Positions 1 to 50,867 of a DNA stretch of 64,000 bases are shown one piece after another (the first letter of the stretch is position 1; the number at the start of each line of letters is the position of its first letter). The stretch lies in assembly GCA_026390775.1 (NCBI GenBank), contig JAPLFF010000003.1:62001-126000 (forward strand). Direction: 5' to 3'. The notes under the pieces were generated by a model that saw nothing but the letters and a program-made list of their open reading frames with translations, was not told where the DNA came from and made no database searches. The translations under genes were made by a program, and so were the position numbers. The DNA is from Ignavibacteriales bacterium. GTDB lineage: Bacteria > Bacteroidota > Ignavibacteria > Ignavibacteriales > Melioribacteraceae.

Positions 1-2
1 CT

Positions 3-191
3 CCGGATAGTGTTACTCTTGAGGAAACAACTCCCGATGAAAAAACTATCGAGTTGTCTCTGAAAGTTGGTGCGGAAGATGTCGGCAAAGTAATAGGGAA
101 ACAAGGTAAAACTGCTCAGGCAATGAGAACCTTGCTTACTGCTATTGCGGCTAAAGAAGGCAAGCGTGCTATCTTAAAAATATTAGATTAA
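3..191 (+). CDS. khpA: KH-domain RNA-binding protein (KhpA/YlqC-like), 3' part only
   Basis: The 5' end lies outside the window; 62 codons remain. The fragment contains a KH-domain core with the RNA-binding loop written GKQGK inside VIGKQGKTAQAMRTLL, and it ends in ILKILD, as the small single-KH proteins of the YlqC/KhpA family do. It lies 10 bases upstream of rimM, and the order rpsP-KH protein-rimM-trmD-rplS is a widespread translation operon, so the missing upstream gene is probably rpsP (inference). The acidic, Thr/Glu-rich segment before the KH core may be a linker or an N-terminal extension. Confidence 0.85.
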   Translation, partial: PDSVTLEETTPDEKTIELSLKVGAEDVGKVIGKQGKTAQAMRTLLTAIAAKEGKRAILKILD

Positions 192-40561: not shown

Positions 40562-40628
40562 GAAAAATGTTTTTGATATAGTTTGTATTTTATTTTAAGT
40601 TGCACTTACCACAAGGGGCGGTTCTATG
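40562..40628 (+). repeat. Leader repeat, copy A
   Basis: A block of about 65 bases, running from GAAAAATGTTTTTGATATAG to CACAAGGGGCGGTTCTATG. It is nearly identical to a block 727 bases downstream in the same orientation. Each follows a palindromic repeat and each lies shortly before a gene (105 bases before the lipoprotein start here). Confidence 0.8.
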
Positions 40629-40732
40629 AGAAAAATGATATTATTGAAATAAATAAAAGTTTTTATAATAAAGGCAGAGTAACAGCTCTGACTATTTATT
40701 TATTCAAAATAAATAATTAAAAGGAGGAACAG

Positions 40733-41170
40733 ATGTTGAATCTAAGAAGATCCTTTCTTTTTATTCTCGCCGCAATTGTTCTCACTATAGCATATGGATG
40801 CAAGAAAGATGACAGTAATCCAACTGCATCTGGAGATGATCTGGTTGGAACGTGGGTTTTGACAAAAGTAATAGTGACAACTCCGCAAGGAAAAGTAAAC
40901 TATACTCCACAGCAAGCAGGTATTACTATGACAGTAACATTAAGGAGTGATAAAACTTATCAGCAGACGCAAACAACTAACGGGCAAACAACAAACGAGA
41001 GCGGTACATGGAGTGTTTCAAATGGTTCAATAATTGCAAATGCCACTACAGGAACTACAATGACTTTACCTTATCGAGTTAATGGAAATATCTTACAGTT
41101 AGATTCTACAACTACCGACCCTTCAACTGGAGCGGTATTACCTATGACACTTGAATATACTAAACAATAA
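40733..41170 (+). CDS. Lipocalin-like lipoprotein
   Basis: The 145-residue protein has a lipoprotein signal (lipobox IAYGC, Cys about residue 22), a KKDDSNPTASGDD linker, and a beta-barrel-type domain reading LVGTWVLTKVIVTTPQ, MTVTLRSDKTYQQTQ, ESGTWSVSNGSIIANA and LPYRVNGNILQLDS. This is the 'lipocalin-like' pattern found in many Bacteroidota surface lipoproteins. The ligand is unknown. AAGGAGGAAC lies before the start. Palindromic repeats and the duplicated leader flank it on both sides. Confidence 0.82.
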   Translation: MLNLRRSFLFILAAIVLTIAYGCKKDDSNPTASGDDLVGTWVLTKVIVTTPQGKVNYTPQQAGITMTVTLRSDKTYQQTQTTNGQTTNESGTWSVSNGSIIANATTGTTMTLPYRVNGNILQLDSTTTDPSTGAVLPMTLEYTKQ

Positions 41171-41196
41171 TTTCCCCGCATACGAAATATTTTTTA

Positions 41197-41256
41197 ACCT
41201 CATGCTTTGTCCCTCTCCTTACAAAGGAGAGGGTGACCCGAAGGGACGGGTGAGGT
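41197..41256. repeat. Palindromic repeat, copy 3 (inverted relative to copy 2)
   Basis: The core CCCTCTCCTT ACA AAGGAGAGGG lies between ACCTCA and TGAGGT ends. Read on the minus strand it aligns along its whole length with copy 2. It lies 26 bases after the lipoprotein stop. Confidence 0.85.
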
Positions 41257-41266
41257 CGTGAGCCTG

Positions 41267-41286
41267 CCCCGTGTTTTTTACGGGGG
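41267..41286 (+). terminator. Hairpin CCCCGT...ACGGGG inside the repeat region
   Basis: A 6-bp GC-rich stem with a GTTTTTT loop, present after copy 3 but absent after copy 2. It has no T-tract after the stem, so termination is uncertain. Confidence 0.4.
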
Positions 41287-41288
41287 TG

Positions 41289-41355
41289 GAAAAATGTTTT
41301 GATTAGTTCGTATTTTATTTTAAGTTGCACTCACCCACAAGGGGCGGTTCTTATG
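41289..41355 (+). repeat. Leader repeat, copy B
   Basis: Second copy of the leader block, ending CACAAGGGGCGGTTCTTATG. It is followed in frame by a 21-codon open frame (41353-41418) that runs into the start of the HerA gene. Whether this small frame is translated is unknown. Confidence 0.8.
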
Positions 41356-41407
41356 CAAAATGATCTTGTACATAACACAAAATCTATTTTAATAATCGGG
41401 GAGTATT

Positions 41408-43549
41408 ATGACCAATAAGATAAAAACATCGATTGAATTAGAACACAAAAACATTCAAAAAGAAAATGCAAAAAAAGTATTCTCGGAGTTAATCCAGAAT
41501 CCTCAGTATGTTGGTGAATTATTCTCTATCAATTATGAAACTGCAAAAGTTCAAATCCATGATAATGAGAGAAAAAAAGTTGGTGGAATCCCGAGTCTTA
41601 GTTTTCTAATTGCAACGAGAATAAATGTTGAATCAGATGAGATGGATTTCAAAGAAGAAGATGCTTCAATAATTCTTTTAAGAGTTAAAGACGCGGCCCC
41701 ATTACCAAATAGTTCGGAAGCAGAGAGAATACGAGTTGAATCAGCACAAAGGATCAGCGGTGAAACCGATAAGCATTGGGATGCGGATGGGGTAATGGAT
41801 ACGAAGACAAGAGTTTACCTTGGGTATGCCGGTCTTGAATGCAGAATTATTGGTACATTTTTTTTGGATGCCATAGATGAAGAAAATCCTGAATCACCAC
41901 TTCAATTAAAATTTGGAAGCGATATATCAAATTATTATCCGAATCGTGGGTTAAAAGTATATAAACCGAACGCAACAGCACTTCAAAGAATTGTCAATTA
42001 TGTTGATCCAAAAAATGTTGCAGATCATTTTGAAAAATATGGTAACCGTTCAACTGTTGAATTAGGTAATATTCGATATGCTTCTACAAACAGAAAGTAT
42101 CAGCATATTGATGGAGTTCCTGTGTCGATCTATCCAGCCGATCTACTTTCGCAAAAGACTGCTTTATTTGGTATGACAAGAACTGGTAAGTCGAATACAA
42201 CAAAAATAATTGCAAAGTCTGTCTATGAACTAAGATTCCCTGCAGAGGGAGAAGGCAAATCTTTAAGAATTGGTCAATTAATCTTTGATCCTAATGGAGA
42301 ATATGCGAATGAAAATGTTCAAGACAATAATAATGCTCTTAAAAATATCTGGAGTATAAACTGTTCTTTGACTTCCGAAAACGAAAGAAAGGAATACAAG
42401 AATAGGGAAATTGTAACATATGGATTATTAACACACCCTAATGATCCCGATAGAATTCTAATGCTGCTTAATTTTTATACTACAGAAAATTTACAAATAG
42501 GTAAAGAGATTATTGATAATATGTTTTCGAACGATGACCCAATTTATATTAAAAATTTTATGCAAATAGTTTTTGAAGCTCCAGATCTTAATGATAGAAG
42601 TGCTGTGATAAGATATAACAGAAGAATTTTAGCGTATAGATCAATTTTATTTCGTGCTGGTTTTACTCCTCCAACAACTTTAAGACCTCAAACGAGTGGA
42701 TTATTTAATCAAAGATTAGTTCAAGCACTTCAACAATATACGGGTGATGATGAAATAACTTATCATTCAGCAGCCACAATTTTGCAAAATAATAATCCAA
42801 CTTGGGGGCAGGTTGCTGATGCATTTGAAGCTATTGAAAAATTTATTAGAAACGATAGCGTTACTGGATATAATACGTTTGAAAATTGGTATGTAAATCA
42901 AAGACCGAATGCTAGTGGAGATAAATGGGCAGAAGAAGATTTCAAAAAACTAATTGGAATTTTTCAATATCCCAATGGTATAAGGCGTATTGGAAGAGCA
43001 TCAAATCAACACACACATTTAACTACAACAGATTATGCAGTTGATATTTACCGTGATCTAGAAGCTGGCAAACTAGTTATTATTGATCAGTCAAGTGGCA
43101 GTCCTGAATTAAACGAATCTTCTTCAAGAAGGATAATGCAGAGAATATTTGATGAAAATAAATCAAGATTCACTTCTGGGCAAACCCCACCAGATATAAT
43201 GGTTTATGTTGAAGAAGCCCATAACTTATTACCCCCTGATAAGGAAAAAGATTATAGAGATATTTGGGTTAGAACAGCTAAAGAAGGAGCTAAATTACGT
43301 ATTGGTATGGTATATGCCACTCAAGAAGTTAGTAGTATTCAAAAGAATATTTTGAAAAACACTGCTAACTGGTTTATTGGGCATTTGAATAATACAGACG
43401 AAACAAAAGAACTGTGCAAATATTATGATTTTGCAGATTTCGAACCTTCTATTCGTAGAGCTCAAGACAAAGGATTTTTAAGAGTAAAAACATTAAGTAA
43501 TCCTTTTGTTATTCCTGTACAAATTAAGTTTTTTACTGTTGAGGAGTGA
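41408..43549 (+). CDS. HerA-like DUF87 ATPase/helicase
   Basis: The 713-residue protein belongs to the HerA/FtsK-like hexameric ATPases. An N-terminal beta-barrel (HAS-like) region comes first (about 25-230). The Walker A is GMTRTGKSNTTK (from residue 255), QLIFDPNGEYANENV follows, and the Walker B is IMVYVEEAHNLLPP (about 597-608). An Arg-finger-like region (WVRTAKEGAKLRIGMVYATQ) and SSIQKNILKNTANWFIGHLNNT close the motor. HerA partners with the NurA nuclease in end resection in archaea and in defence-associated pairs in bacteria. The downstream gene overlaps its stop region, and its product starts with a NurA-like segment. Confidence 0.88.
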   Translation: MTNKIKTSIELEHKNIQKENAKKVFSELIQNPQYVGELFSINYETAKVQIHDNERKKVGGIPSLSFLIATRINVESDEMDFKEEDASIILLRVKDAAPLPNSSEAERIRVESAQRISGETDKHWDADGVMDTKTRVYLGYAGLECRIIGTFFLDAIDEENPESPLQLKFGSDISNYYPNRGLKVYKPNATALQRIVNYVDPKNVADHFEKYGNRSTVELGNIRYASTNRKYQHIDGVPVSIYPADLLSQKTALFGMTRTGKSNTTKIIAKSVYELRFPAEGEGKSLRIGQLIFDPNGEYANENVQDNNNALKNIWSINCSLTSENERKEYKNREIVTYGLLTHPNDPDRILMLLNFYTTENLQIGKEIIDNMFSNDDPIYIKNFMQIVFEAPDLNDRSAVIRYNRRILAYRSILFRAGFTPPTTLRPQTSGLFNQRLVQALQQYTGDDEITYHSAATILQNNNPTWGQVADAFEAIEKFIRNDSVTGYNTFENWYVNQRPNASGDKWAEEDFKKLIGIFQYPNGIRRIGRASNQHTHLTTTDYAVDIYRDLEAGKLVIIDQSSGSPELNESSSRRIMQRIFDENKSRFTSGQTPPDIMVYVEEAHNLLPPDKEKDYRDIWVRTAKEGAKLRIGMVYATQEVSSIQKNILKNTANWFIGHLNNTDETKELCKYYDFADFEPSIRRAQDKGFLRVKTLSNPFVIPVQIKFFTVEE

Positions 43550-43554
43550 AAGTA

Positions 43555-44946
43555 ATGCCTTTTGAGAATGAATTTGCAAGTTATGAGCCTCTGCGGAGGA
43601 TATTAGAGAATCCTAAGGTAAAAGCTCTACAAAACAGATTAAAGATTAGAACTTTAACTGAAAGCCATGAAGAAATTCAAAAACGATTAACAGAGCTTTC
43701 GAAAATTAAACCAAGTGATTTCCAGCCTGACTTAATTATTGCAATTGATGGAAGTCATCATGAAGTGAAAATTGAAAATGGATTTCCCGGTGCTGAAATT
43801 GGATACATTACAGTAGCTTCTGTTTTACTATTTTTAGATAAAGTTCGCGAACATTCTAAAGAAGAATTTATTTCGAGATGGCTGCGGTTTGGGCCTTACT
43901 ATGCTATGTTCCCAATGGAGTTCGCTTTTAAAGTTATCGAAAAGTACAGTGAACTGGGTGACTATATAATCGATCCCTTTTTTGGCAGAGGAACAAGTAT
44001 TATTGCAGCGAGTGTATTAGAAAGGAAAAGTTTGGGTATTGAAATCAATCCTCTTGGTTGGCTATATACTCAAACTAAATTACATCCTGCCTCAAAAGAT
44101 AGAGTATTGAGCAAATTAGATGAGATAAATGATTATTCGCACAAATACAAAGATGAATTAAAAGAACAATCACGATTTTTCAGACTCTGTTTTTGTGATG
44201 ATGTCCTTAAGTTTTTAATTTCTGCTCGTAAGAACCTTAATTGGAAAAAATCAAAAGTTGACGCAACATTAATGTCATTTATTTTAGTTTATCTTCATGG
44301 TAAAATTGGTGAAGGATTATCAAACCAGATGAAGATGACAAAGTCAATGGGGTACAATTATTCAATTGAATGGTGGTTAAAGAATGGTTATGAAAAACCT
44401 CCCGTAATAAATCCGTCCGAGTTTCTGAAAAAGCGTATTGAATGGAGATATGAAAAAGGGAAACCAAACTTAAATCATAATAAAATATTTCTTGCTGATG
44501 CATCGACGAAGTTGAATACTATTTCACAAAAAGCTGAATCAAAAAAATATTCTCTTTTATTCACCTCGCCTCCATATTGGTCAATTACTAATTACCATGT
44601 TGATCAATGGCTAAGGTTGTGGCTATTAGGCGGTGCTCCTAGACCAACATCCCTTACAGAAAATAACAAAGGTAGATTTTTATCTAAACAAAAGTACATG
44701 GAAATGTTGCAAAGTGTATTTGCTTCAACTGCTAAGATGATGAAAAGGAAAAGTATAATTTATGTTAGAACAGATGCGAGGGAATTTACTTTTAATATTA
44801 CAAAAGAAGTATTGCAAAGAAATTTCCCAAATCATAAACTTCAAATAAAAAAACAACCACTTAATTCTCATAAAACGCAAACTCAATTATTCGGTGATAA
44901 ATCTGAAAAACCTGGTGAAGTAGATATAATCTTAAAAAGAAACTGA
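43555..44946 (+). CDS. NurA N-terminal segment fused to a DNA methyltransferase
   Basis: 463 residues from the ATG with GAGGAG eight bases upstream (a GTG at 43546 is alternative). Residues 1-97 match the start of bacterial NurA: MPFENEFASYEPLRRI, LIIAIDGSHHEVKIENGFPGAEIGYITVASVLLFLDK, with the DGS of nuclease motif I at 65-67. From about 105 the chain becomes a SAM-dependent DNA methyltransferase: FGPYYAMFP, DPFFGRGTSIIAA (140-152) and the catalytic TSPPYW (337-342), typical of amino-methylating N4-cytosine/N6-adenine enzymes. The later NurA motifs are absent, so nuclease activity is unlikely. I infer that the N-terminal part docks onto the HerA-like ATPase encoded immediately upstream. The gene ends 2 bases from convergent comF. 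Confidence 0.8.
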   Translation: MPFENEFASYEPLRRILENPKVKALQNRLKIRTLTESHEEIQKRLTELSKIKPSDFQPDLIIAIDGSHHEVKIENGFPGAEIGYITVASVLLFLDKVREHSKEEFISRWLRFGPYYAMFPMEFAFKVIEKYSELGDYIIDPFFGRGTSIIAASVLERKSLGIEINPLGWLYTQTKLHPASKDRVLSKLDEINDYSHKYKDELKEQSRFFRLCFCDDVLKFLISARKNLNWKKSKVDATLMSFILVYLHGKIGEGLSNQMKMTKSMGYNYSIEWWLKNGYEKPPVINPSEFLKKRIEWRYEKGKPNLNHNKIFLADASTKLNTISQKAESKKYSLLFTSPPYWSITNYHVDQWLRLWLLGGAPRPTSLTENNKGRFLSKQKYMEMLQSVFASTAKMMKRKSIIYVRTDAREFTFNITKEVLQRNFPNHKLQIKKQPLNSHKTQTQLFGDKSEKPGEVDIILKRN

Positions 44947-44948
44947 AC

Positions 44949-45632
44949 CTAATCCGCTATTGCCACAGAAGTCGCATAAACATTTGCTGCACCACTTTCC
45001 AAAATAATTCTTCCGCATTCGGCAATAGTAGCGCCGGTTGTTATAACGTCATCAACCAGTAATACATTTTTATTTTGTAATAATTTATTTCGGTGGAGAG
45101 CGAAAGCATCTTTTATATTCTCCTTTCTCTCTACTAAATTCCGACTTGTCTGTGTCTCTGTAAAACGAACGCGCTTTATCAATCTGCTTTTTACCGGAAC
45201 AAGTAAAATCTTTTTCATTCCTTTAGCAATAAAATCCGATTGATTATATCCGCGTTCCGCACGTTTTAAGTGATGAAGGGGAATTGGAATAATTAAATCA
45301 ATTTTCCACTCTTGAATTTTATCATTCACAGCGGCGGCTAATAATTTACCGAGGAAAATTCCAATATTGAATTTACCGTTGTACTTCAGATCGTGGATTA
45401 TATCCTGAAGCTCTTTATCTTTTTCAAAAACAAAAAGGGAAGTAAATCCTTTTATGATCTTTTCATTCTTAAATTTTCTTGCGAATTCGTTTTCGATTCT
45501 TTCACTATCGGCATGTTTTATTTTTGATAAACAAGAATTGCATACAACAATTTCAGCATTCGTAAGTTTATTTTTACAAGAAGGACAGAAACGCGGCAGA
45601 AAGAAATCGGAAATGTCGGTTAGAAAGCTCAT
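44949..45632 (-). CDS. comF: ComF-family phosphoribosyltransferase-like protein
   Basis: The 227-residue protein has an N-terminal zinc-finger-like cysteine cluster (RFCPSCKNKLTNAEIVVCNSC) and a phosphoribosyltransferase fold with the PRPP loop NVLLVDDVITTGATIAECG. The middle motif is LIIPIPLHHLKRAERGYNQSDFIAKGM. ComF takes part in DNA uptake in naturally competent bacteria; here it stands at the end of a minus-strand gene run without other com genes. Confidence 0.92.
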   Translation of the reverse strand: MSFLTDISDFFLPRFCPSCKNKLTNAEIVVCNSCLSKIKHADSERIENEFARKFKNEKIIKGFTSLFVFEKDKELQDIIHDLKYNGKFNIGIFLGKLLAAAVNDKIQEWKIDLIIPIPLHHLKRAERGYNQSDFIAKGMKKILLVPVKSRLIKRVRFTETQTSRNLVERKENIKDAFALHRNKLLQNKNVLLVDDVITTGATIAECGRIILESGAANVYATSVAIAD

Positions 45633-45641
45633 CTATATTTA

Positions 45642-46058
45642 TTAAGAAATACCTTTTTCAATAAAATATTTCCCGCACTTTTTATCACTGAGTTCTAAGT
45701 GATTAAAGAACCACTGCCTAATTCCTTTCAACTGTTCTAATTCGATCGTCTCAAGGCCTTTGCTGTAACGGTCTGTTGAGGTGAGCATCTGTTTGTAAAA
45801 CCGGTCGTGCTCGAGCTTATGAGAAATATAACCGGGAAATTTTGTTGACCTCATCAAATTTTCTTCGTTCTCAAAATGAACTTCAACAACCTCAAGAAGT
45901 TTATACAGATAATTTTTAATTAACTTTTTATCTGCAGAAATTATTTTATCATACAGCTTATTAACCAATACCGCCATTGATTGATGCTGCTCGTCAATCG
46001 AGTTGATTCCGATAAGATCGTTCTTGGTAAGTTCAATGAAGTTCATTGCTGTGCCCAT
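45642..46058 (-). CDS. Bacteriohemerythrin
   Basis: A 138-residue four-helix-bundle protein that binds O2 at a di-iron centre. The ligands are visible: His in GINSIDEQHQSM, the HFENEENLM pair (His and Glu), the HKLEHDRF pair, and a final His/Asp in HLELSDKKCG. A cytoplasmic form without signal peptide, perhaps an oxygen store or sensor in a microaerophile or facultative anaerobe. A second Met four residues in is an alternative start. Confidence 0.92.
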   Translation of the reverse strand: MGTAMNFIELTKNDLIGINSIDEQHQSMAVLVNKLYDKIISADKKLIKNYLYKLLEVVEVHFENEENLMRSTKFPGYISHKLEHDRFYKQMLTSTDRYSKGLETIELEQLKGIRQWFFNHLELSDKKCGKYFIEKGIS

Positions 46059-50000: not shown

Positions 50001-50867
50001 TTGAACAAGAGAGAAAATAATTTCATCAATCTCGGTTTACGGGGACGATTAAACAAAAATAATAAGCTTAACGATCTTACCGGCAAAGAATGGCTTAAGT
50101 TTACCAAGAGCTGGTTTATACACCGTCCTCCGCGGAGAAAAGAAAATGAAATATTACATCCGGCTAAATTTCCGGAATCGTTAGTTGAAGAGTTTATTAA
50201 ATTTTTTACAAAGAAAAACGGATTGGTGTTAGATCCTTTTATGGGGACGGGAAGTACTCTAATCTCTGCAGCAGGAATTAATCGTAAATCAGTTGGCGTA
50301 GAACTGAACAAAAATTATTTCCGGTCTGCTTCAAAAAGAATTACTAAAAGAGAATTCGAAAAATTAGCTTTTCCAATTAACGGAGATTCCCTTCATTTGA
50401 AAGAGCTGTTATTAAAAAACGGATTTGAAAAAATTAAATTTGATTATACTATTACTTCTCCTCCGTATTGGAATCAGCTTATGAGAAATTCATTGCGTCA
50501 AAAAAACAGAAAAGAGAAAGGACTTGATACAAAATATTCAATCAACAAAAATGATATTGGAAATATAAATTCTTACGAAGAATTTTTAGAAAAACAAGCA
50601 CAGGTATTCGATCAAGTGTATGATGTAACAAAGCCGAACTGTTACTTAACAATTATTACCAACAATGTTTATTTTGAAGGGAAACTTTATCCGCTCGCGT
50701 TCGATACGGCAATCTCATTAACAAAGCGCGGTGAAAAAAGCTGGGTACTGAAAGATGAAAAAGTTTGGCTTCAAGATGATAAAAAATTAATTGCACTTGG
50801 TGTTAACAATGCTTGGGTGGGTAACCGCCACCATCAATATTGTTTGATCTTTAGAAAAGAGAAATGA
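50001..50867 (+). CDS. Solitary DNA methyltransferase (N4-cytosine/N6-adenine type)
   Basis: The 288-residue protein carries HPAKFPESLVEEFI, the SAM-binding DPFMGTGSTLISAA (78-90) and the catalytic TSPPYW (152-157). It ends with NRHHQYCLIFRK, all typical of amino-methyltransferases. No restriction endonuclease gene is adjacent, so it looks solitary. It starts at TTG, follows the secreted-protein gene by 6 bases and overlaps xseA by 4, so it is embedded in a housekeeping transcript. Its motif order (DPF-G-GT before TSPPYW) is the same as in the methyltransferase near 44 kb, but the two are not close copies. The target site is unknown. Confidence 0.88.
   Translation: MNKRENNFINLGLRGRLNKNNKLNDLTGKEWLKFTKSWFIHRPPRRKENEILHPAKFPESLVEEFIKFFTKKNGLVLDPFMGTGSTLISAAGINRKSVGVELNKNYFRSASKRITKREFEKLAFPINGDSLHLKELLLKNGFEKIKFDYTITSPPYWNQLMRNSLRQKNRKEKGLDTKYSINKNDIGNINSYEEFLEKQAQVFDQVYDVTKPNCYLTIITNNVYFEGKLYPLAFDTAISLTKRGEKSWVLKDEKVWLQDDKKLIALGVNNAWVGNRHHQYCLIFRKEK

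What the first reader, a model, noticed from the sequence alone, without database searches (positions are those of the whole stretch)
41408..44946. HerA-like ATPase coupled to a NurA-fragment/DNA-methyltransferase fusion: candidate new defence or DNA-modification module
The second protein begins with a NurA-like segment (IIAIDGSHHEVKIENGFPGAEIGYITVASVLL) that carries nuclease motif I. It then switches at about residue 100 to a complete-looking amino-methyltransferase with DPFFGRGT and TSPPYW. NurA is the obligate nuclease partner of HerA, so the N-terminal part looks like the retained HerA-facing end of NurA with the nuclease replaced by a methyltransferase. This would give a HerA motor that delivers a methylase instead of a nuclease. 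HerA and the fusion are translationally coupled and lie in a repeat-rich, accessory-looking spot between housekeeping genes. I know HerA-NurA, HerA-SIR2 and similar pairs, but I do not recall this arrangement.
Basis: partly seen in the sequence, partly recalled or inferred. Interest (0 to 1): 0.8.

Follow-up and report, generated by a model that had tools for sequence, protein, structure and literature searches.

The report
Deletion-damaged HerA-NurA-methylase defence cassette
The apparent nuclease-methylase fusion is best read as the scar of a deletion inside a widespread three-gene DNA-motor, nuclease and methylase cassette; the fusion itself seems a one-off, while the intact cassette looks like a little-described bacterial defence system.

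Summary
An intact HerA-type motor (41408-43549) is followed by one ORF (43546-44946; probable start ATG 43555, 463 aa). Its first 106 residues are the start of NurA (family profile 1-106 of 449, E 6e-37); the rest is a DNA methyltransferase beginning at profile position 14 of 373. Of 80 related loci, 69 have all three, 54 at full length, none with NurA and methyltransferase in one ORF. Best reading: an in-frame deletion of about 1.1 kb that removed three quarters of NurA, with conserved nuclease-core positions and six of nine listed HerA contacts, leaving a restriction-dead, possibly modification-competent remnant.

The by-product is more interesting: a HerA-NurA-methyltransferase cassette in 21 named phyla, whose HerA and NurA are closest among solved structures to TdpA and TdpB. 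In the window's genus its site holds another defence-like module in a relative. A Vibrio phage carries HerA-NurA beside its integrase, with a methyltransferase of another family.

The parts
41408..43549 (+). HerA-type DNA-translocase ATPase, 713 aa, intact
   Evidence: DUF87 46.4 bits; Walker A and EEAH motifs; 206 of 208 columns that are at least 97% conserved in relatives are kept; best PDB sequence match TdpA 8wet, E 2.8e-16
43546..44946 (+). NurA-fragment/methyltransferase fusion ORF (probable start ATG 43555, 463 aa)
43555..43872 (+). NurA remnant, residues 1-106: motif I Asp and the part that forms the N-terminal helices, first two long strands and a helix in an intact relative
   Evidence: family NurA profile 1-106 of 449, 121.7 bits; secondary structure read off the model of intact L061 NurA
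43872..43873 (+). Fusion junction (KEEFI / SRWLRFGPYYAMFP), read as the scar of an in-frame deletion of about 1.1 kb
   Evidence: alignments A1 and A2 and DNA of four intact relatives at both edges
43873..44946 (+). Amino-methyltransferase part (N6_N4_Mtase), lacking about the first 15 residues of relatives
   Evidence: PF01555 60.4 bits; 54-61% identical to the 15 relatives listed
43972..43995 (+). Methyltransferase motif I, DPFFGRGT (SAM binding)
   Evidence: meaning of the motif recalled
44563..44580 (+). Methyltransferase motif IV, TSPPYW (catalytic)
   Evidence: meaning of the motif recalled
41234..44935 (.). Accessory stretch absent from the same site in same-genus genome G410
   Evidence: blastn of the window against L167: window 40570-41233 and 44936-45893 match; the stretch between has only one weak match (41291-41367, a second copy of the upstream repeat)

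Best explanation
The locus is a damaged copy of a widespread HerA-NurA-methyltransferase cassette. The intact cassette most likely works like a restriction-modification system: the methyltransferase marks host DNA, and a HerA hexamer with a NurA dimer (a TdpAB-like translocase-nuclease) threads and degrades unmarked DNA. In the window one in-frame deletion joined NurA residue 106 to methyltransferase residue ~16. Shown: the parts, the intact relatives and the missing stretch. Inferred: the nuclease is dead, HerA has lost its partner, and what remains active is at most the methyltransferase, an orphan modification activity with a vestigial NurA tail.
For: Separate full-length NurA and methyltransferase genes behind HerA in relatives. 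Of 80 related loci 69 hold all three, 54 full length, none fused. No second fusion seen in 395 phylum or 79 family genomes. NurA profile covers only 1-106 of 449, MTase profile 14-372 of 373. Four intact NurAs match Pfam NurA over nearly its whole length (114, 82, 77, 45 bits). Columns invariant across 32 NurAs (such as P108, N128, R142, D213, R216) or at least 90% conserved (D267, H434) lie in the missing part. No other Pfam NurA match in the own genome. Model of intact L061 NurA (pLDDT 85) best matches TdpB (8wfd_G, Z 20.1, 320 aligned), then Sulfolobus NurA (Z 14.9). Variable, defence-type site; very short HerA branches across phyla.
Against: The join is in frame and the NurA fragment shows no decay: its identity to relatives is 4.5-8.7 points above expectation (rank 46 of 56 given HerA, 54 of 56 given MTase), and 10 of 10 conserved columns are kept. 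HerA looks intact. The MTase is slightly more diverged than expected from HerA (rank 10 of 56 from the low end; 2 of 84 conserved columns changed, fifth worst of 52), so its activity is not assured. A recent deletion and a fusion under selection cannot be told apart. HerA groups with L103 (support 100), MTase with L099 (82), so the genes may have partly different histories. The pre-deletion parent was not found. HerA-NurA also occurs without a family MTase hit nearby (L170, L171). The defence role is inferred.
Confidence: 0.82

Rival explanations
1. Functional fusion: the NurA start tethers the methyltransferase to the HerA ring, so HerA delivers a methylase instead of a nuclease.
For: Frame kept, fragment not decayed, HerA intact. 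Three of nine listed Thermococcus NurA contacts (R3, I5, F70) lie in the N-terminal part (PMC12977600 passages; that F70 maps inside the retained part is my estimate).
Against: Seen once: 0 of 80 loci, and only the own genome among 395 phylum and 79 family genomes. The other six listed contacts (M365, H390, R401, I423, P441, L442) and Deinococcus motifs 3 and 4 lie in the deleted part. Residues 1-120 of the fusion were modelled with low confidence (block means 26-61, but with one row over that part, so weak).
Confidence: 0.1
2. Assembly artefact: the genome really has an intact nurA and methyltransferase gene, and about 1.1 kb was lost in assembly.
For: Seen once; reads were not available. Two short repeats (14-15 nt, 87-93%) span the junction, with partners elsewhere in the region, though of chance size.
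Against: Good assembly (8 contigs, 99.94% complete), locus inside an 848-kb contig, and no long repeat at the break. An in-frame join is one chance in three.
Confidence: 0.07
3. The intact cassette serves DNA transfer or repair rather than defence, like the Thermus tdtA operon (restriction enzyme, NurA-like, TdtA, methylase) needed for DNA donation.
For: Same three protein types in one Thermus operon; TdtA and the NurA-like protein are needed for transjugation (PMC5365140 passages), and loss of the methylase has minor effects (PMC7767461 passages).
Against: Different gene order and sizes there. Here the site holds a defence-like module in a relative, HerA-NurA lies beside a phage integrase, and 2 of the 8 methyltransferases without HerA and NurA stand beside FRG and GmrSD_N genes (L108, L113). 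Homology to the Thermus operon was not tested.
Confidence: 0.2

Closest known systems
TdpAB (PDB 8wet, 8wfd; An et al. 2025, Nat Chem Biol 21:1160, seen only as a reference-list entry)
   Same: Window HerA's best PDB sequence match is TdpA (E 2.8e-16), as is that of the divergent L050 HerA (E 2.5e-15); the intact L061 NurA model's best structural match is TdpB (Foldseek E 2.9e-7, Z 20.1).
   Different: Recalled: Tdp pairs with a phosphorothioation enzyme. Here the third gene is a base methyltransferase, and in the window the nuclease is mostly deleted.
Thermus thermophilus ICETh1 tdtA operon (PMC5365140, PMC7767461)
   Same: NurA-like nuclease, FtsK-HerA superfamily ATPase and N4/N6 methylase in one mobile operon.
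   Different: Order NurA-TdtA-methylase behind a type IIG restriction enzyme; NurA-like 377 aa, methylase 410 aa; shown role is DNA donation.
Archaeal and Deinococcus HerA-NurA end-resection complex
   Same: Same motor and nuclease families; L061 NurA model matches 2ygk, 9x1m and 7f6d (Z 14.9, 13.0, 12.2).
   Different: No methyltransferase partner (recalled); a repair role; window HerA is far below the NCBIfam repair-HerA equivalog cut-offs (36 of 800 and 31 of 970 bits).
HerA-SIR2 and HerA-DUF4297 defence pairs
   Same: HerA motor with an effector; NCBIfam antiphage HerA models hit weakly (31 and 22 bits).
   Different: Effector is NurA plus a methyltransferase; curated cut-offs of 800 and 850 bits are not reached.

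Membership tests
NurA nuclease | Whole nuclease domain (PF09376, 254 positions, cut-off 21 bits) | tested here: not met
   Window 2-31 of 254, 15.0 bits; four intact relatives 114, 82, 77 and 45 bits over nearly the whole profile
NurA nuclease | Conserved residues of the nuclease core (motif I D65, D267, H434 in A3 numbering) | tested here: not met
   Only the motif I Asp is present; D267 and H434 lie in the deleted part. That D267 and H434 are catalytic is recalled.
HerA ATPase | DUF87 domain, Walker A and B | tested here: met
   46.4 bits over a cut-off of 23.2; GMTRTGKS 255, EEAH 602
HerA ATPase | Hexamer and dsDNA translocation | not testable with these tools
   Needs biochemistry
N4/N6 DNA methyltransferase | PF01555 with motifs I and IV | tested here: met
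   60.4 bits; DPFFGRGT, TSPPYW; 82 of 84 conserved columns kept
HerA-NurA-MTase cassette | Three full-length adjacent genes | tested here: not met
   NurA and MTase are truncated and joined in the window; 54 of 80 loci have three full-length genes
Tdp system | TdpA-like motor and TdpB-like nuclease | tested here: inconclusive
   Best PDB matches for HerA and for an intact relative's NurA, but remote; the window lacks most of the nuclease
Tdp system | Phosphorothioation enzyme in the operon | not tested
   The third gene is a methyltransferase; no TdpC sequence was searched for
A new NurA-MTase fusion family | Fusion recurs in other genomes | tested here: not met
   0 of 80 loci; only the own genome of 395 and of 79; 28 further relatives were not returned

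The most novel reading that the evidence does not exclude
The intact HerA-NurA-methyltransferase cassette is an undescribed, widespread class of restriction-modification in which a TdpAB-like motor-nuclease, not a site-specific endonuclease, is controlled by base methylation. The window preserves a natural restriction-minus, modification-plus deletion of it.
Probability: 0.5. Interest if true: 0.65.

Novelty: new variant of a known kind. Interest (0 to 1): 0.38.

Why it matters
The fusion itself teaches little: it looks like a scar. What it led to may matter. A motor-nuclease-methyltransferase cassette occurs in 21 named bacterial and archaeal phyla (69 loci), with forms on plasmids, and no paper found here describes it as a defence system (searches; the library lacks most subscription journals). 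If it is restriction-modification, it poses a testable question: how does a base mark stop an end-processing HerA-NurA engine?

Tried and rejected
Structure of the fusion: pLDDT 58.6, residues 68-120 under 50; only 7 rows and one over the N-terminus, so it neither supports nor refutes an independent fold. PDB sequence search with the NurA alignment: no match at E 0.01; with L061 NurA: one chance-level match; only the fold comparison worked. Fusion protein against IMG/VR: 1 stretch matched a pattern, none a relative; with A2: 2 relatives, of which L172 has a whole MTase but no HerA or NurA hit. PADLOC gives no hit for 4 of 4 NurAs tried, L045, L047, L048 and L050. Pfam NurA misses L050, L121 and L051, and L052 falls just under the cut-off (20.9 of 21), so Pfam alone undercounts the family.

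Plasmids and phages: the fusion matched 13 of 72,556 plasmid and 4 of 50,697 phage records, mainly over its MTase part; HerA matched 5 and 2. I opened six: L141 and L142 have an MTase but no HerA or NurA hit; L143 and L169 have all three; L170 has HerA and NurA with an MTase that the family profile does not match; L171 has HerA and NurA and no MTase hit.

I expected relaxed selection on the NurA fragment to show; it does not. These residuals come from pairwise identities that share ancestry, so ranks are descriptive; two pairs of rows (L047/L085, L048/L096) seem to be the same contigs (equal contig lengths) and were counted twice. One search used only pairs over 50% HerA identity; one search left out seven divergent rows (L050, L121, L125, L130, L131, L133, L136). 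The trees left out L048 and L085. The HerA and MTase profiles included the window's own rows; the NurA profile did not. The similarity of HerA across phyla (L045, L058, L061, L062) may partly reflect MAG contamination.

Of 108 relatives in genome contigs the best 80 were returned and examined; 8 show neither HerA nor NurA and 3 only one of them; some contigs are cut. The genome search scored only a few first-look candidates per genome in the phylum searches. Papers: PMC9960219 section 7 and passages; PMC12977600, PMC10853773, PMC12839542, PMC5365140, PMC7767461, PMC12345140 and PMC13251355 passages only; others only as search listings. Gene names XdhC, ComF, xseA (window), ORF6N, PIN-like and topoisomerase, and the Dam- or N4/N6-type methyltransferases beside HerA-NurA in L051-L056, are by eye.
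Full report
What is there. Two overlapping genes lie at 41408-43549 and 43546-44946. The first is a HerA-type ATPase (DUF87 46.4 bits; Walker A and EEAH). Its first 106 residues are NurA and the rest is an amino-methyltransferase. Pfam sees only 30 residues of NurA, below its cut-off. A profile made from 32 NurAs, without the window, matches at 121.7 bits over profile positions 1-106 of 449, while the methyltransferase profile starts at position 14 of 373.

Where the fusion came from. In 395 genomes of the phylum, G106, G052, G087 and G363 match both halves, and there they are two genes: HerA (701-751 aa), then NurA (455-459 aa), then methyltransferase (372-375 aa), the last two overlapping by four bases. 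G278 has the same order with more divergent genes. Four intact NurAs match nearly the whole Pfam profile. A scan of GTDB species genomes gave 108 relatives, of which 80 were returned. Of the 80, 69 have HerA, NurA and methyltransferase hits, 54 as three full-length genes, 8 have neither HerA nor NurA, 3 have one; in none are NurA and methyltransferase in one ORF. Among 79 genomes of the window's family only its own has a match at E 1e-20. NurA plus methyltransferase span about 2490-2510 bp in L045, L047, L048, L061 and L103 and 1392 bp here, so about 1.1 kb is missing, from NurA codon 107 to methyltransferase codon ~15. The parent copy was not found and I could not tell what drove the deletion; two repeats of 14-15 nt span the junction but are of chance size.

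What the deletion costs. The intact NurA of L061 models well (pLDDT 85.3). The retained part corresponds to its N-terminal helices, two long strands and a helix; the remaining strands and helices, with D267 and H434, conserved in 90% or more of the 32 NurAs, are gone. In Deinococcus NurA, mutating C-terminal motifs 3 and 4 weakens HerA binding significantly, motifs 1 and 2 slightly (PMC9960219 section 7). In Thermococcus, six of nine listed contacts lie at residue 365 or later (PMC12977600 passages). So the fusion keeps a minor part of the HerA interface and no complete nuclease core. The own genome has no other Pfam NurA match. HerA keeps 206 of 208 and the methyltransferase 82 of 84 columns that are at least 97% conserved in relatives. 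I infer a restriction-dead remnant with a possibly active methyltransferase.

What speaks against me. The fragment is not decayed, which fits either a recent deletion or a useful fusion. The methyltransferase is a little more diverged than expected (rank 10 of 56). HerA and methyltransferase trees place the window differently. The structure of the fusion is uninformative.

Place in the genome. Between an XdhC-like and a ComF-like gene (named by eye) the genus has a variable site. G410 has the small lipocalin/NlpE-like gene followed by the ComF-like gene without the cassette; G411 has there a gene matching PADLOC PDC-S05, a DGQHR/DndB-like gene, an unknown, a Dam-like methyltransferase and a PDC-S14 gene. 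This looks like a defence hot spot.

What the intact cassette is. Window HerA is nearest in the PDB to TdpA (E 2.8e-16); the L061 NurA model is nearest to TdpB, ahead of NurA itself (Z 20.1 against 14.9). The order is mostly HerA-NurA-MTase, but MTase-HerA-NurA in L110 and divergent in L128 and L134, so the partnership, not one order, is kept. All three are also on a Deferribacter plasmid (HerA interrupted by a TnpA/TnpB element) and a haloarchaeal plasmid, confirmed by profile. A Vibrio phage has HerA and NurA beside its integrase with an annotated type II methyltransferase that the family profile does not match, and a Tolypothrix plasmid has HerA-NurA without a methyltransferase hit, so the motor-nuclease pair is not tied to this methyltransferase alone. 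Of the 8 methyltransferases without HerA and NurA, two stand beside FRG and GmrSD_N genes (L108, L113). This suggests a modification gene with exchangeable restriction partners. The nearest described operon is Thermus tdtA (PMC5365140), whose shown role is DNA donation.

Verdict. The fusion is most likely a one-off deletion product. The cassette it came from is the better finding.

Noticed in passing
window 50001-50867: A second, solitary N6_N4 methyltransferase (288 aa, PF01555 103.9 bits) overlaps the start of an xseA-like gene (named by eye); in L087 a methyltransferase of the cassette family also stands directly before an exonuclease VII large-subunit gene.
   Followed up: no
L165 1672-6587 (genome G411): At the same site a same-genus genome carries PDC-S05, a DndB-like DGQHR gene, a 275-aa unknown, a Dam-like methyltransferase and PDC-S14: a candidate defence module of its own.
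   Followed up: partly
L071, L074, L076, L077, L080, L091, L096 upstream of HerA: A conserved ~340-aa protein (FCFDANVLLNLYRY or near, PIN-like by eye) precedes HerA in a subset of cassettes: a possible fourth component.
   Followed up: no
L086, L094, L097, L104 upstream of HerA: Another conserved ~280-aa basic protein (RLTAVDIQNMRTLAEMLGELVPYSGRGNFNLQ or near) precedes HerA in a second subset.
   Followed up: no
L052 6020-13489; L055 6631-14100: A five-gene variant in two genomes: methyltransferase (by eye), HerA, NurA-like, SMC/AAA ATPase, HNH protein (families checked for L052 only).
   Followed up: partly
L063, L066, L069, L075, L109, L119, L122, L135: In 8 of 80 loci HerA or NurA falls into more than one ORF (L075 lies at a contig end), so damage to the motor-nuclease arm may be frequent.
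   Followed up: no
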